Below are positions 47,797 through 52,708 of a stretch of 64,000 nt of DNA, in pieces. Each line of letters opens with the position of its first letter. Position 1 is the stretch's first letter. Both the position numbers and the translations under genes were made by a program. The stretch is taken from contig JAVUPY010000051.1 in NCBI GenBank assembly GCA_032252755.1, positions 1 to 64,000 of the forward strand. The letters run 5' to 3'. Origin of the DNA: Terriglobia bacterium. GTDB taxonomy: Bacteria > Acidobacteriota > Terriglobia > Terriglobales > Acidobacteriaceae. The notes under the pieces were generated by a model that had not been told where the DNA came from, did no database searches, and was given only the letters and a program-made list of their open reading frames with translations.

Positions 47797-47898
47797 TTTT
47801 CTCGAACGGTAAGCTACTAGCGATGCCCTGTGATGACGATCACTTCCATTTCCGCCTCTACGCTGTAAAGCTGTCACCAATTGCTCCATGAGGCTACG

Positions 47899-49173
47899 AT
47901 GGCCCGCGTTGTCCTTTGTACGTTTGGTTCTTTAGGGGACCTGCATCCTATCCTTGCTATTGGCCGCGAGTTGACGCAGCGCGGACTGTCGACTGTCGTC
48001 GCCACTTCTCCGGCATATCGCGCAAAAGTGGAAGCATCTGGGATTGAGTTTCATCCCGTTGGAACTGATATCAGGATCGATGATCCCGCCATTCTGAAGC
48101 GCGCCATGCACCCCAGCGACGGCACCCGGTACATCTTCTGTGAACTGGTGCTGCCGTACTTGCGCGAGTCGTATCAGGAGACCGCCGCCATTGCACGCAA
48201 TGCGGACCTCATCGTCACCCACCCGGTCACCCTCGGTGCTTACCTGTACGCGCGTAAGTCTGCAATGCCCTGGGCGTCGCTCGCATTGGCCCCCGTCAGC
48301 ATGCTTTCCTCGCATGACATGTGTGTCTTCCCCGGATTTCCCGCCCGGGAGTGGCTCGCCCGCCGCGGGCCACGAACCCAGCGGTTATTTCTGAAGTTTG
48401 TGGAAAAGGTGTTCGAACCATACTGGAAGTGCTACCGCGCCTTTGAGCGCGAACTCGGATTGCCGCGCAGCCGGAATCCCATCCTGTTCGGACACTCGCC
48501 GCAACTGGCGCTAGCGTTGTTCTCGCCCATTCTTGCTTCTCCAAAACCCGATTGGCCACCGAACGCGCACGTCACCGGGTTCCCGTTCTTCGATCAGGAA
48601 GAGACCATCCCGCCGGACCTTCAGAAGTTCCTCGAGTCGGGCGAGCCCCCAATCGTGTTCACCCTGGGTTCGGCGGCCATTGGCGCAGCCGGCGATTTCT
48701 TCCATCAGAGCGTTGAAGCAGCGCGCATACTTGGCCGACGGGCCGTCCTGCTCGTCGGCAATGATCCAGCCAATCAGATGAACAAGTTGCCACAGGGTAT
48801 GATCTCAGTCCCGTATGCACCGCACTCAGCAATCTTCCCCCGGTCATGCGTCAACGTACATCAAGGCGGTATTGGAACGACTGCCGAGGCCATGCGCGCG
48901 GGAAAACCAATGCTGGTCGTTCCCTACAGCCATGACCAGCCCGACCATGCCTATCGGCTGAAGAAATTGGGAGTCGCGCGAAGCGTGCGCCGCAAGGAAT
49001 ACAACGCAAAGAGCGCGGTGCGTGAGATATCCGAACTGCTTCGCAACCCGGCCTATTCAAACCGAGCCGCCGAAGTCGGGACGTCTGTGCGATCAGAACA
49101 CGGCGTCAAGACAGCCTGCGACTTGCTCGAAGCTGTTGTGAAGAGAGGAGAGGCTCGATCCACCTTCGCCTAG
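47899..49173 (+). CDS. UGT/MGT-type glycosyltransferase (GT1 family)
   Basis: A 424-residue GT-B-fold transferase that would glycosylate a lipid or small molecule with a UDP/TDP-sugar. The N-terminal domain begins VVLCTFGSLGDLHPILAIGRELTQRGLSTVVATSP, the classic GSxGDxxP acceptor-side motif. The C-terminal domain has PPIVFTLGSAAIGAAGDFFHQSVEAARILGRRAVLLVG, VNVHQGGIGTTAEAMRAGKPMLVVPYSHDQPDHAYRLKKLGVAR, the UGT donor-binding signature with HxGGxGT and a final Asp/Gln pair. ATG 47899 has GAGG seven bases upstream; a TTG at 47881 is in frame. Isolated gene, followed by a long non-coding stretch. Confidence 0.92.
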   Translation: MARVVLCTFGSLGDLHPILAIGRELTQRGLSTVVATSPAYRAKVEASGIEFHPVGTDIRIDDPAILKRAMHPSDGTRYIFCELVLPYLRESYQETAAIARNADLIVTHPVTLGAYLYARKSAMPWASLALAPVSMLSSHDMCVFPGFPAREWLARRGPRTQRLFLKFVEKVFEPYWKCYRAFERELGLPRSRNPILFGHSPQLALALFSPILASPKPDWPPNAHVTGFPFFDQEETIPPDLQKFLESGEPPIVFTLGSAAIGAAGDFFHQSVEAARILGRRAVLLVGNDPANQMNKLPQGMISVPYAPHSAIFPRSCVNVHQGGIGTTAEAMRAGKPMLVVPYSHDQPDHAYRLKKLGVARSVRRKEYNAKSAVREISELLRNPAYSNRAAEVGTSVRSEHGVKTACDLLEAVVKRGEARSTFA

Positions 49174-49309
49174 AGGTCCGGGGGGCCCACCGTTTTCAGC
49201 TCGCGGCGCGAGCGCCTCAACGTCTAGCCACGCACTCAGCGCGTGGAGGAGGCGGGACAAGAATCCCGAGATGTGCAGTCCCTCCCCCTATTTTGCGAAT
49301 CTTTGTTTT

Positions 49310-49344
49310 CAATATTTTGCGGAAATTTTCCCGCTAAAATATTG
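49310..49344. repeat. A/T-rich hairpin
   Basis: CAATATTTT (49310-49318) plus GCGG pairs with CCGC, a bulged T and AAAATATTG (to 49344), loop AAATTTTC. It is unusually A/T-rich for this genome, lying about 140 bp behind the glycosyltransferase gene. Confidence 0.6.
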
Positions 49345-49670
49345 AGCGCCAAGGGTTTAAATCTGAAAATACCAAGAGTGGCTTTGTTTTCAGTGGTTTG
49401 TGCTCGAAGAATGTGCGTCTGGCTGCGTGATATCGGGCATGTTCGGTAGCCAGTAGGCGGTCGTCAGCAGCGTGAAGATGTCATTCGTTCTTCGTGAGAG
49501 GCAAAACGGAGACGATAGCGAAGGGCAAGTCCCAAATGGAGGAACCGCCCAGGATTGTTGATCCTGGGATAGCGTCGGCGCGGCCGGTACCGCAGCGACG
49601 AGTCGGGATGTGAAAGATCAGAACGGCAACCGAAGAACGGACTTCGGGGCCGAATTGCCCCACCCAAAAA

Positions 49671-49746
49671 GCCCTACCCTCTCGCCAACTAATCCACGCT
49701 GGCCGACTGCGGGCCAGGATGGGGCACCCAGCGAGAAGGGTAGGGC
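49671..49746. repeat. Nested long inverted repeat
   Basis: The outer arms GCCCTACCCTCTCGC (49671-49685) and GCGAGAAGGGTAGGGC (49731-49746) pair with one bulge. Inside lies a second imperfect palindrome, TGGCC (49700-49704) facing GGCCA (49712-49716), with GGATGGGGCACCC beside it. Related GCCCCACCCTGG/CCAGG...GGGC arms occur at 54662. It resembles a REP-type composite element. Confidence 0.65.
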
Positions 49747-49773
49747 ACCATCGGGGTAGGGGCACAAAAGCTT

Positions 49774-49796
49774 GCGGCGCCCGCTAGGGGCGCCGC
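49774..49796. repeat. GC-rich hairpin
   Basis: GCGGCGCCC (49774-49782) and GGGCGCCGC (49788-49796) form a perfect 9-bp stem with a 5-base loop. There is no U-tract on the plus strand. Confidence 0.6.
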
Positions 49797-50017
49797 TCGA
49801 TGGACTGTGTCCAGAACAATTGTAACCTGTGGGGTCAAGGGTGTGGTCGGTTAAGAGCGAACAAAATCTTCGGGGAGTTCCAAAATGGGAAGACCGGCCC
49901 TCAGTTCTGCCTTCCTAGTTCCAGTTGGTTCTTTCTTCGTTCATTGTTCTGCCTAGTAAAAGGTGGCGGCTAAGTCCTTGCTCGATTCACCGCAGCCCCT
50001 GTGATACCGTTTCGTCA

Positions 50018-50782
50018 GTGCCCCGAACCGACTGGAGCCGTGACCAACTAATCATTGCTTTTAATCTCTATTGCAGAATTCCTTTTGGCCGTATCCATCG
50101 ACGTAATCCGCAGATAGTTTCCCTCGCCGCAAAGCTCGCTAGAACCCCTTCTGCACTCGCTTGGAAACTCTCAAATTTTGCTCGCCTTGATCCCGAACTT
50201 CAGAAGAGGGGAATTAGGGGAGCTTCTCACGGTTCCAAAGCTGAGGAAACGATCTGGGAAGAGTTCAACGGCAATTGGAACGAACTGGCCTATGAAAGCC
50301 AACGACTTCTGTCTCAACTTGGTTGGCAGGATCCTGCTCAGAAGCTGGAATCATTGCCTCCCGGTAAGAGTCGAGTCGCATCGGTAAAAGTACGGGTCAA
50401 CCAAGACTTCTTTCGTGCAGCGGTTATGGCGTCATACCAAAACCGCTGTTGTATCACTGGCTTATCGATACCGGAGCTTCTTACCGCTAGTCATATTGTT
50501 CCGTGGTCTATCGACGAAACGAACCGAACCAATCCTCAAAATGGTGTTTTGCTTAATGCTTTTCATGACCGAGCATTCGACTGTGGCTTGCTCACAATAA
50601 CCCCTGATTTCAGAGTGCGCATCGCGGATAGGCCATCCCAAACAACTCCTGCTGACATTTCTGCCCGGCGCGATTTCCTTCTGAAATTCGAAGGCAAACA
50701 AATAGAATTGCCGACACGATTTGTGCCAGCCCCTGCTTTCCTTCGATACCACAACCGAAATATCTTTCGCGGGTGCGTATGA
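50018..50782 (+). CDS. HNH endonuclease
   Basis: A 254-residue predicted nuclease. The C-terminal half carries an HNH domain: RCCITGLSIPELLTASHIVPWSID, then NPQNGVLLNAFHDRAFDCGLLTI, with H159, N175 and H183 as probable catalytic/metal residues (HNH_2-like arrangement). The N-terminal half (RDQLIIAFNLYCRIPFGRIHRRNPQIVSLAAKLARTPSALAWKLSNFARLDPELQKRGIRGASHGSK) looks like a helical DNA-binding module. I start at the GTG at 50018, where similarity-like sequence begins; the open frame reaches 49925. The stop overlaps the ATG of the next gene, so the pair is co-translated. Base composition is lower in G+C than neighbours, consistent with horizontal transfer. Target and biological role (defence, mobile element, other) are unknown. 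Confidence 0.88.
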   Translation: MPRTDWSRDQLIIAFNLYCRIPFGRIHRRNPQIVSLAAKLARTPSALAWKLSNFARLDPELQKRGIRGASHGSKAEETIWEEFNGNWNELAYESQRLLSQLGWQDPAQKLESLPPGKSRVASVKVRVNQDFFRAAVMASYQNRCCITGLSIPELLTASHIVPWSIDETNRTNPQNGVLLNAFHDRAFDCGLLTITPDFRVRIADRPSQTTPADISARRDFLLKFEGKQIELPTRFVPAPAFLRYHNRNIFRGCV

Positions 50783-51168
50783 ACATCGAATTCAGTTACC
50801 TCTATCGTGACGCCTCAAATTACAAGTCGTGGGGACGCGTTGTTTTTGCAGAAGGTGCCTCCGACCAAATAAGCATTGATCTAGCCGACGCCCAGCTACG
50901 CGCCTCGTTTATGTACGACACTTTCTCAGCTCACCAACTTTCTTTGCCTGAGCTCTTTACTAATTTGCAGGGCTACCCTGGCCCCGACGATCACTGTTTG
51001 CACGAATTTGATTCAATCGTGCTCACTGATGAAGCGCCGACGGATTTACTCGCGCGCACCTTCTCTCAATTCTTAGAGCAAGTGAGGACCACTGCCAACG
51101 ACGGTTGGGAAGGTTTTGATCCGTATAGTCCCTCACGGTCGGATCGTATGTTCCGGTTCTTGTTTTAG
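50779..51168 (+). CDS. Small protein coupled to the HNH endonuclease, function unknown
   Basis: A 129-residue soluble acidic protein: MNIEFSYLYRDASNYKSWGRVVF at the N-terminus, then SIDLADAQLRASFMYDTFSAHQLSLPELF, DDHCLHEFDSIVLTDEAPTDLLARTFSQFLEQV, and an aromatic C-terminus with WEGFDPYSP. No catalytic motif is recognised. The ATG overlaps the HNH gene's stop (ATGA), which implies a fixed stoichiometry. I believe similar small proteins (YLYRDAxNYKxWGxVVF) accompany HNH genes elsewhere, but that needs a search. Candidate roles are nuclease inhibitor, immunity protein or specificity partner. Lower G+C content than the genome average. Confidence 0.8.
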   Translation: MNIEFSYLYRDASNYKSWGRVVFAEGASDQISIDLADAQLRASFMYDTFSAHQLSLPELFTNLQGYPGPDDHCLHEFDSIVLTDEAPTDLLARTFSQFLEQVRTTANDGWEGFDPYSPSRSDRMFRFLF

Positions 51169-51202
51169 GGCTTGGCCCTCGCTACTACTCAGGCCCACTG
51201 GG

Positions 51203-51560
51203 TCCAAGCGAGGAGCAATAACCGAAAATCGGTCGAAGCCGGATTTTCTTTTCTCATCCGTGGATAACTATCGCGATCCCAGTTTCCCAGGAGATCGACT
51301 CACGATGCTAGGTGCGAAAAGTACATGCAAAGACCGGTGGAGACAGGTTCTTGCGGAGGCAAATCGAATCTCGCAAGCATCTGTTCACGCTGGAAACTGC
51401 AATCAGTTCCTTCCAAACCGAAGAGATGTCTGCGAACAACTTGCAGCTGGTGCTGCCGAGAAGTTTGCACGCGACCTATACGGAATCTCAGCAGCACGCA
51501 TTGCTTGATCTCGAATCCTTCATTGGATTGGTTCGCGAACGGCAAGATATCAGCAACTGA
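51203..51560 (+). pseudogene. Remnant of an EcoRII-type restriction endonuclease catalytic domain
   Basis: From 51206 one frame encodes KRGAITENRSKPDFLF, then DPSFPGDRLTMLGAKSTCK and DRWRQVLAEANRI. This is the core of EcoRII-C-type type II restriction enzymes, with the acidic PDFLF and the Lys of GAKSTCKDR as active-site segments. At about 51371 the match jumps one base to another frame and continues RKHLFTLETAISSFQTEEM, then NNLQLVLPRSLHATYTESQ and FIGLVRERQ to a stop at 51558-51560. A single extra base explains the shift. The N-terminal recognition domain and the start are missing; similarity ends just behind the preceding gene. No cognate methyltransferase is visible. Family call is from remembered conserved motifs. 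Confidence 0.82.
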
Positions 51561-51721: not shown

Positions 51722-52708
51722 TCAGTGCCCGTTCATCGCTCTTCGATACGCAATCACGTTCTTTTCGTGCTCCTCGAACGTGCTGCTGAAGCGATGTCTT
51801 CCGCTGCCGTTTCCTTCGGCCACGAAGAACAGGTAATCGGTCTTCGCCGGATTCATCGCCGCCTCCAACGCCCCGACCCCGGGATTCGCGATCGGTCCCG
51901 GCGGAAGCCCCGCGTGCTTGTAGGTGTTGTACGGCGAATCGGCATCCAGATCGCTGCGGTAGATCGTCCCGCGATAGTTGCCGCTGAGCATCGCCGCATA
52001 GGCGACCGTGGGATCGGCGGCCAGCCCCATCCGCTTCGCCAGCCGGTTGTAGTAAACGCTGGCAATCTCAGGACGTTCGTCCGCGGCAGCCGATTCTTTT
52101 TCCACGATCGAAGCCATCGTCACGATCGTGTGAACGTTGTCGCGCAGGCCGATCTTCGTCGCTTCCTGCTCGAAACGCTTCACCATCATCGCGACCATGT
52201 CCTGCATCGACTGCGTTCTGGTGAACTGGTAAGTATCGGGAAATAGATATCCTTCGAGCGTCTGCGCCTGCGGATCGATGTTCCGGATCAGCGACACATC
52301 ATCACGCGCAACCTTGAGGAAGTCCTCGGCCGAACCGAGCCCCGAATCCTGGATCGCCTGCGCGATCTCGAACATGTTGTAGCCTTCGGGAATGACGACT
52401 GTGTGCGTGTAGATATCGCCCTTCGCCAGTCGATCGCCGACTTCGATGGCATTCGCACTTGCGTCGAACTTGTACTCACCAGCCTTCAGCTTGTGAGCCG
52501 GACGGAAATAGTGCAGCAGCACAAACGCATTCGCGCTGCGAATCACACCAGAGCTCTTGAGCTGTTGCGCAATCCGCCTGCTCGACCACCCTGGATGCAA
52601 CATGACGAACGTCGTCTGCGCAGGCTTGATGGGCAGAAAGATCCCATAGACGAGCCAAAGCCCGAGTCCGAGAACCACCAGCACGAAGATCGCGAACAGG
52701 CGACGCAT
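51722..52708 (-). CDS. mltG: Endolytic murein transglycosylase MltG
   Basis: A 328-residue membrane-anchored lytic transglycosylase that cuts nascent glycan strands and sets their length. One N-terminal helix (FAIFVLVVLGLGLWLVYGIFLPI) is followed by a LysM-like segment (about 35-95, LHPGWSSRRIAQQLKSSGVIRSANAFVLLHYF). The YceG catalytic domain has LEGYLFPDTYQF, TMASIVEKESAAADERPEIASVYYNRL (catalytic Glu in EKES), DPTVAYA, and DSPYNTYKHAGLPPGPIANPGVGALEAAMNPAKTDYLFFVA. All hallmarks are intact. ruvX lies 4 kb away, whereas in many bacteria mltG and ruvX are adjacent. Confidence 0.95.
   Translation of the reverse strand: MRRLFAIFVLVVLGLGLWLVYGIFLPIKPAQTTFVMLHPGWSSRRIAQQLKSSGVIRSANAFVLLHYFRPAHKLKAGEYKFDASANAIEVGDRLAKGDIYTHTVVIPEGYNMFEIAQAIQDSGLGSAEDFLKVARDDVSLIRNIDPQAQTLEGYLFPDTYQFTRTQSMQDMVAMMVKRFEQEATKIGLRDNVHTIVTMASIVEKESAAADERPEIASVYYNRLAKRMGLAADPTVAYAAMLSGNYRGTIYRSDLDADSPYNTYKHAGLPPGPIANPGVGALEAAMNPAKTDYLFFVAEGNGSGRHRFSSTFEEHEKNVIAYRRAMNGH

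What the first reader, a model, noticed from the sequence alone, without database searches (positions are those of the whole stretch)
49800..51560. Low-G+C HNH endonuclease with a coupled unknown partner next to a dead restriction gene: candidate undescribed defence module
Seen: an HNH gene and a 129-residue gene overlap by ATGA. They sit between a repeat-rich non-coding stretch and an EcoRII-type remnant, and their base composition is visibly lower in G+C than both flanks. Known: HNH nucleases and restriction enzymes cluster in defence islands, and tightly coupled small partners often act as inhibitors or specificity factors. Inference: the intact pair may be a compact two-gene anti-phage or selfish nuclease system.
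Basis: partly seen in the sequence, partly recalled or inferred. Interest (0 to 1): 0.7.

Follow-up and report, generated by a model that had tools for sequence, protein, structure and literature searches.

The report
HNH nuclease in restriction-system ruins
A bacterium carries an intact DNA-cutting gene, joined to a small gene of unknown function, beside the remains of a broken restriction system; the cutter looks like a known kind of defence enzyme, while the small partner belongs to an undescribed family that recurs beside such cutters.

Summary
An HNH gene (50018-50782) and a 129-residue gene (50779-51168) share ATGA, have the lowest G+C in the window, and are followed by a truncated, frameshifted EcoRII remnant. 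The HNH protein looks like a solitary restriction enzyme: HNH_2 domain, PADLOC 'HNH', VcaM4I-like nuclease half, probably Myb-like N-terminal helices. That is the layout published for PcaRCII, a Pectobacterium enzyme that restricts 5mC-CCWGG DNA. Of 29 homologous loci, 9 lie beside C5-methyltransferase, Vsr, EcoRII or MvaI/BcnI genes or fragments, including gonococcal NgoAXIII; one of the 9 clearly keeps an intact adjacent methyltransferase. The small family has no Pfam, NCBIfam, PHROG or PADLOC match and no fold match. It follows HNH directly in 5 of 29 loci, probably joined at least twice; elsewhere it occurs in viral contigs, on a plasmid and near other defence genes. Most likely this is a PcaRCII-like restriction nuclease that took the place of a CCWGG restriction-modification system, with the acidic partner tuning or inhibiting it. 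Methyl-dependence, partner role and phage defence are inferred. A strict toxin-antitoxin pair is disfavoured: 24 of 29 HNH loci lack the partner.

The parts
50018..50782 (+). HNH endonuclease, 254 aa, GTG start; N-terminal helical (probably Myb-like) domain plus HNH_2 nuclease domain; catalytic-type residues H159, N175, H183/D184 present
   Evidence: PF13391 E 4.1e-12; PADLOC PDLC04132 E 2.5e-92; VcaM4I 6yex E 1.2e-7; A2 alignment; model
50779..51168 (+). 129-aa acidic partner (pI 4.4) of the undescribed YLYRDAxNYK family, 4-bp ATGA overlap with the HNH gene
   Evidence: no Pfam, PADLOC or PHROG match and no NCBIfam match better than E 0.3; homologues; HNH-adjacent in 5 of 29 loci; model pLDDT 81
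51169..51560 (+). Dead EcoRII C-terminal remnant: first two thirds absent, frameshift near 51357-51370; the clear homology is 51209-51545
   Evidence: PF09019; tblastn with relatives' EcoRII; PDB EcoRII
49174..50017 (.). Stretch upstream of the HNH gene, taken as non-coding; no dcm or Vsr remnant detected in it
   Evidence: tblastn with 7 Dcm and 7 Vsr proteins, no window match at E 0.01; repeats
51722..52708 (-). mltG (YceG-like), right border of the foreign block; HNH and partner not found beside mltG in relatives
   Evidence: PF02618 E 1.6e-86; 0 of 19 relative loci

Best explanation
The window holds a stand-alone restriction nuclease with a probably Myb-like DNA-reading N-terminus and a VcaM4I-like HNH C-terminus, built like the methylation-dependent enzyme PcaRCII. 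It lies where a Dcm-EcoRII-Vsr (CCWGG) restriction-modification operon once stood and appears to have replaced it. Shown: domain content, the EcoRII remnant, foreign composition, recurrence of intact HNH beside broken dcm, EcoRII or Vsr genes in several lineages, and the recurrent coupled partner. Inferred: the enzyme cuts foreign DNA bearing 5-methylcytosine (probably CCWGG/CCNGG), which would explain why it survives without a methyltransferase and why neighbouring Dcm-type genes are usually dead. Inferred more weakly: the acidic 129-aa partner, translated from the same mRNA, binds the nuclease and restrains or tunes it, an optional safety device found in a minority of these loci.
For: HNH_2, PADLOC HNH and VcaM4I matches. 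N-terminal helices in the model (pLDDT 82-92 for residues 1-50); VIA-align pairs residues 1-58 with spliceosome chains at Z 4.0-4.1, rmsd 2.8-2.9 over 50 residues, top row Z 4.8, rmsd 4.3 over 62; that these are Cef1/CDC5L Myb repeats is recalled. PcaRCII: same layout, no MTase nearby, restricts 5mC CCWGG/CCNGG phages and plasmids (PMC8989522, sections 24 and 28 read, passages elsewhere). RM ruins: EcoRII remnant in the window; dcm N-end, EcoRII C-end and Vsr around HNH in G167; dcm fragments in G072 and G337 (plus MvaI/BcnI-family gene); Vsr fragment in G087; Vsr plus truncated dcm upstream of intact HNH in N. gonorrhoeae. Proximity beyond chance: PF00145 2 seen, 0.036 expected; PF09019 2 seen, 0.002 expected (rough). 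Partner beside HNH in 3 of the 5 distinct loci of the window's phylum found by searching with the small protein itself (neighbours).
Against: PcaRCII's sequence is not held here, so homology to it is untested. G021 carries an intact dcm-EcoRII-vsr operon elsewhere and an intact HNH gene 57% identical to the window's, which a constitutive CCWGG-5mC cutter should not tolerate. G021 has a CCCGG at -18 that could allow silencing, but it also has CCNGG near -128, and 4 other starts of the 12 checked have CCNGG within 200 bp. G764 has an apparently intact Vsr-MTase-HNH operon with a 4-bp overlap, which looks like ordinary type II. The window's genome has a C5 methyltransferase ORF elsewhere. The HNH model is poor overall (pLDDT 58). 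Vsr proximity alone is weak (1 seen, 0.036 expected, P 0.04), and the Vsr piece of G087 was seen by tblastn but not by the Vsr profile. Nothing shows the partner binds HNH, and one HNH-linked partner is hardly acidic (G791, pI 6.5).
Confidence: 0.5

Rival explanations
1. Orphaned type II enzyme: HNH was the cognate restriction enzyme of a C5-methyltransferase system (as in G764). The methyltransferase was lost and the small protein, or weak activity, now protects the host.
For: G764 has Vsr, a 460-aa C5 MTase (PF00145 E 3.6e-26) and HNH in one operon with a 4-bp overlap. PADLOC model PDLC03546 'HNH, Type II restriction enzyme' matches the window at E 4.3e-47. Gonococcal NgoAXIII is Vsr plus truncated MTase (PMC6789123 passages) with HNH next to it.
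Against: A cognate enzyme should not outlive its methyltransferase in many lineages, yet 1 of 29 loci clearly has an intact adjacent MTase. Several HNH loci showed neither MTase nor partner (e.g. G021, G078, G331). The intact EcoRII operons of relatives contain no HNH match.
Confidence: 0.25
2. Selfish or homing nuclease that inserts into and destroys dcm/ecoRII genes, without a defence role.
For: In G167 the HNH gene lies between a dcm N-end and an EcoRII C-end; in G337 and N. gonorrhoeae it follows a dcm piece cut at or near motif IV (motif name recalled). HNH genes overlap serine recombinase-like ORFs in two viral contigs.
Against: Flanking genes are deleted, not interrupted with both halves kept. 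Loci also lie beside HsdR, ResIII, BglII and Drt5 genes, i.e. in defence neighbourhoods of other kinds. Fragment ends seen by tblastn are biased to conserved motifs.
Confidence: 0.12
3. Toxin-antitoxin-like pair: HNH is toxic and the 129-aa protein is its obligate antidote.
For: ATGA overlap in the window and G777; the other three pairs are 8, 12 and 21 nt apart; both genes frameshifted in G072, a draft genome 68% complete where assembly error is possible. Partner usually acidic, window HNH basic (pI 9.9).
Against: 24 of 29 HNH loci lack the partner; the partner also occurs without HNH in viral contigs, on a plasmid and in genomes.
Confidence: 0.1

Closest known systems
PcaRCII, methylation-dependent HNH endonuclease of Pectobacterium carotovorum (PMC8989522; sections 24 and 28 and passages seen)
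   Same: C-terminal HNH of VcaM4I/TagI kind, N-terminal three-helix bundle, no methyltransferase of its own, link to Dcm-type CCNGG/CCWGG methylation
   Different: pcaIIR is present in all ten strains compared, at a fairly conserved locus; here the gene is foreign, lies in RM ruins and has a coupled partner. Sequence homology untested; methyl-dependence not shown here.
VcaM4I (EVE-HNH, PDB 6yex)
   Same: HNH half alignable (E 1.2e-7, query 120-198)
   Different: only the HNH half matched; its N-terminal EVE reader (named so in a reference title seen) did not align with the window protein
NgoAXIII locus of N. gonorrhoeae (Vsr plus truncated C5 MTase, between pheS and pheT)
   Same: intact HNH ORF (44% identical) shortly after a truncated dcm piece
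   Different: Vsr intact, no partner gene match; the passages read do not mention the HNH gene
Dcm-EcoRII-Vsr type II RM operons of related genomes
   Same: kind of system from which the remnant at 51169-51560 comes
   Different: the intact operons read contain neither an HNH nor a small-gene match

Membership tests
PcaRCII-like solitary methylation-dependent HNH enzymes | C-terminal HNH domain of the VcaM4I/TagI kind with catalytic residues | tested here: met
   PF13391, 6yex E 1.2e-7, H159/N175/H183-D184 conserved; TagI itself was not among the matches up to E 0.1
PcaRCII-like solitary methylation-dependent HNH enzymes | N-terminal three-helix (TRF1/Myb-like) DNA-binding bundle | tested here: inconclusive
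   confident helices at 6-18, 29-37, 42-55; best VIA-align Z 4.0-4.8 to spliceosome chains recalled as Myb repeats, below a safe level
PcaRCII-like solitary methylation-dependent HNH enzymes | no methyltransferase of its own beside it | tested here: met
   the two PF00145 matches of the genome lie in one ORF on another contig; no Dcm match in the window by tblastn. Other methylase families were not searched
PcaRCII-like solitary methylation-dependent HNH enzymes | cleaves or restricts 5mC-modified CCWGG/CCNGG DNA only | not testable with these tools
   needs enzyme or plating assays
PcaRCII-like solitary methylation-dependent HNH enzymes | full-length sequence similarity to PcaRCII | not testable with these tools
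Type II RM system with HNH enzyme | intact cognate methyltransferase gene adjacent | tested here: not met
   no C5 methylase match beside it in the window; seen clearly in 1 of 29 homologous loci (G764)
EcoRII restriction enzyme (PF09019) | complete gene with effector and catalytic domains | tested here: not met
   codons 290-402 only, in two frames
Phosphorothioate-dependent HNH enzymes (NF045808) | score over the curated cut-off | tested here: not met
   48.1 bits against 180; only the C-terminal HNH part aligned
Toxin-antitoxin system | nuclease always with its antidote gene | tested here: not met
   partner in 5 of 29 HNH loci
Homing endonuclease (free-standing or intron/intein) | host gene preserved around the insertion | tested here: not met
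   the EcoRII 5' two thirds are missing; no dcm match in the window

The most novel reading that the evidence does not exclude
The acidic YLYRDAxNYK family is an undescribed, portable regulator or inhibitor of restriction nucleases. Bacteria couple it to a solitary HNH enzyme as a built-in brake, phages and plasmids carry it as anti-restriction, and the HNH-partner cassette converts CCWGG restriction-modification loci into their opposite, an enzyme that attacks the very mark the old system made.
Probability: 0.17. Interest if true: 0.75.

Novelty: new variant of a known kind. Interest (0 to 1): 0.5.

Why it matters
If right, it shows in genomes how a bacterium can swap 'methylate self, cut the rest' for 'cut what is methylated' at one locus, a conflict shown experimentally in Pectobacterium (PMC8989522). 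It also offers an unnamed small-protein family, shared by viral contigs, a plasmid and restriction loci, that can be tested directly as a restriction regulator or anti-restriction factor.

Tried and rejected
A strict toxin-antitoxin reading was rejected because most HNH loci lack the partner. Phosphorothioate-dependent enzyme rejected. A dcm or Vsr remnant in the window was sought and not found. Foldseek of the small model gave nothing convincing in PDB (best E 1.0) or BFVD (best E 0.12), and VIA-align at most Z 2.8; I draw no fold claim. Foldseek of the poor HNH model gave nothing (best E 0.88). Phage records hold no small-protein match at E 0.01, although 11 viral contigs do (some near-duplicates of each other). 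A first viral scan with the HNH alignment found none; a broader one found 18, of which 3 match over the full length. CCWGG is not clearly depleted in the window (183 against 202 expected). Upstream CCNGG sites show no clear pattern. Pfam/PADLOC were run on selected neighbours only, so 13 of 29 may be too low. Two weak signs are not counted in it: a PADLOC LeoBC match at E 3.6e-5 beside HNH in G105, and an annotated restriction endonuclease about 5 kb from HNH on the Hymenobacter plasmid. The chance estimates assume uniform placement and, for PF09019 and the small gene, a mean genome of 4.0 Mb. G072's broken HNH row was left out of the tree (28 of 29 loci), and G072, G017 and near-duplicate viral rows out of its small-protein tree (15 rows).

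Full report
WHAT IS THERE. The window is contig C51 of a 5.39-Mb genome in 96 contigs; no call names the organism. Between a glycosyltransferase-like gene (47881-49173) and mltG (51722-52708, minus strand) lie, on the plus strand, an HNH gene (50018-50782), a 129-codon gene (50779-51168) that overlaps it by ATGA, and a dead EcoRII remnant. The pair has 49.6% G+C against 57.9% (s.d. 1.7) elsewhere, and low GC3. No HNH or small-gene match lies within the up to 1.5 kb held on each side of mltG in 19 relative loci. The block therefore looks foreign. The 'repeat-rich' upstream stretch shows only a few short repeats.

THE REMNANT. EcoRII homology covers codons 290-343 and then 341-402 of a 407-codon relative, in two frames. 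Searching PF09019 in 200 relatives gave 10 positive genomes, among them the window's own and G167, whose copies are fragments. Six stretches (L060, L061, L062, L064, L065, L066) hold a complete-looking cluster of C5 methyltransferase, EcoRII and Vsr, in varying order, and contain neither an HNH nor a small-gene match.

THE NUCLEASE. It has HNH_2, a PADLOC HNH match at E 2.5e-92 and an HNH part related to VcaM4I. The model is poor overall (pLDDT 58), but its first 80 residues are mostly confident helices. The best VIA-align rows pair residues 1-58 with spliceosome chains at Z 4.0-4.1 (50 residues, rmsd 2.8-2.9), with a top row of Z 4.8 (62 residues, rmsd 4.3). I recall these chains as Myb repeats of Cef1/CDC5L; by the tool's own note this is not a safe fold assignment. 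A paper found late (PMC8989522; sections 24 and 28 and passages read) describes PcaRCII. It has a VcaM4I/TagI-like HNH half, an hTRF1-like three-helix N-terminus and no methyltransferase nearby, and it restricts phages and plasmids methylated at CCWGG and potentially CCNGG. The layouts agree; the sequences could not be compared here.

HOMOLOGOUS HNH LOCI. HNH homologues occur in 12 of 200 relatives, 6 of 247 genomes of the phylum by the PADLOC model and 14 of 399 of the class; the samples overlap and include the window's own genome. In all I examined 29 loci: 24 from these genomes, one gonococcal, one Hymenobacter plasmid and three viral contigs. Nine lie beside C5-methyltransferase, Vsr or CCWGG-type enzyme genes or fragments. 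They are the window; G167 (dcm N-end, EcoRII C-end and Vsr); G072 (dcm piece); G087 (Vsr piece by tblastn, not seen by the profile); G337 (dcm cut near motif IV, then HNH, then an MvaI/BcnI-family gene, E 2.5e-28); G645 (180-aa C5-methylase stub, convergent); G764 (apparently intact Vsr, methylase and HNH, 4-bp overlap); N. gonorrhoeae (Vsr, dcm cut at motif IV, then HNH); and viral L104 (Vsr and an NgoFVII piece, with a weak dcm-like match 4.6 kb away that runs off the held stretch). Motif IV is my recalled name. Four more lie beside other defence genes: HsdR (G299), ResIII (G107), BglII (G107, second copy) and Drt5 (G089). The other 16 showed none, but only selected neighbours were scanned with profiles. 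Rough chance estimates are 0.036 expected against 2 seen for PF00145, 0.036 against 1 for Vsr, and 0.002 against 2 for PF09019. The gonococcal locus is NgoAXIII, reported as Vsr plus a truncated methylase (PMC6789123 passages; NmeDI lies at pheS-pheT in meningococci, PMC7973814 passages).

THE PARTNER. The small protein has no match in Pfam, PADLOC or PHROGs and none better than E 0.3 in NCBIfam. Relatives share N2, Y7, Y9, R10, A12, N14, K16, F49 and D71 (14 sequences). Searches with the small protein found it in 4 of 200 relatives, 2 of 396 of the phylum and 2 of 299 of the class, the window's own genome counted each time. That makes five distinct loci (window, G015, G072, G017, G415), three of them directly after HNH. 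Among the 29 HNH loci it follows HNH in five (window, G015, G072, G791, G777). The overlap is ATGA in the window and G777; in G791, G015 and G072 the ATG lies 8, 12 and 21 nt after the HNH stop. In G072, a 68% complete draft, both genes are frameshifted. In the trees the HNH of G777 is outside the window's clade, and its partner groups with an Undibacterium protein that is not beside HNH (93/86, and 93/92 with a viral one; not starred), so the association probably arose at least twice. Elsewhere the family occurs in 11 viral contigs and on a Bdellovibrio plasmid. It also lies within 30 bp of a NOV_C gene in L023, about 0.8 kb from an AAA_5 (McrB-like, recalled) gene in Undibacterium, and about 2.6 kb from an ArdC-type gene in G017. 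Fourteen of the 15 members measured have pI below 5.2, ten of them below 4.6; G791 is the exception at 6.5. The model (pLDDT 81) gives no convincing match to solved or viral structures.

HOW IT PROBABLY WORKS. A solitary HNH enzyme that tolerates the absence of any adjacent methyltransferase, sits where CCWGG systems have died, and has the layout of an enzyme that cuts 5mC-CCWGG is best explained as a methylation-dependent restriction enzyme. Entry of such a gene into a cell with a Dcm-type system would force silencing, as in Pectobacterium, or loss of the methylase. That step is inferred. Against it stand G021 (intact dcm-EcoRII-vsr and intact HNH in one genome) and G764 (a type II-like operon). 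The partner, acidic and translationally coupled but optional, is most simply a regulator or inhibitor; this is the weakest step.

PRINT. Literature searches (listings, with passages of six papers seen and two sections of one read) showed no paper on the small family or on this HNH-partner pair. That is a statement about these searches only; none used the small protein's sequence motif as a term.

VERDICT. Real, foreign and defence-associated; the nuclease is of a known kind, the coupled partner is undescribed in the libraries searched. The pair is a variant worth testing, not a new category.

Noticed in passing
L030:6001-6629 (viral contig): A viral member of the small family overlaps by 4 bp a gene with weak HNH-endonuclease and DUF968 matches, the latter just under its cut-off, perhaps another small-protein/HNH pairing.
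   Followed up: partly
L105:1-2362 and L106:5001-7309: HNH genes of this family overlap the start of a large ORF that I recognise as a serine recombinase (recalled, no profile run) in two viral contigs.
   Followed up: no
L080:5202-7595 (G337): A dcm gene cut near motif IV runs into about 150 unrelated codons, followed by HNH and an MvaI/BcnI-family gene lacking its first 46 profile positions.
   Followed up: partly
L070:4950-6741 (N. gonorrhoeae, pheS-pheT): The NgoAXIII remnant is followed by an intact HNH ORF that the passages I read do not mention.
   Followed up: partly
L046:5812-8132 (G089): An HNH homologue lies directly after a Drt5-type reverse transcriptase gene (PADLOC E 2.2e-197).
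   Followed up: no
L039:5430-5894 (G087): A different 154-aa gene without Pfam match follows HNH after a short gap, ahead of a Vsr fragment; HNH may have several alternative small partners. It had no relative in the other 28 HNH stretches.
   Followed up: partly
G000:C52:252651-254156: The window's genome has a 634-codon ORF with two separated C5-methyltransferase matches, i.e. a long insert between them.
   Followed up: no
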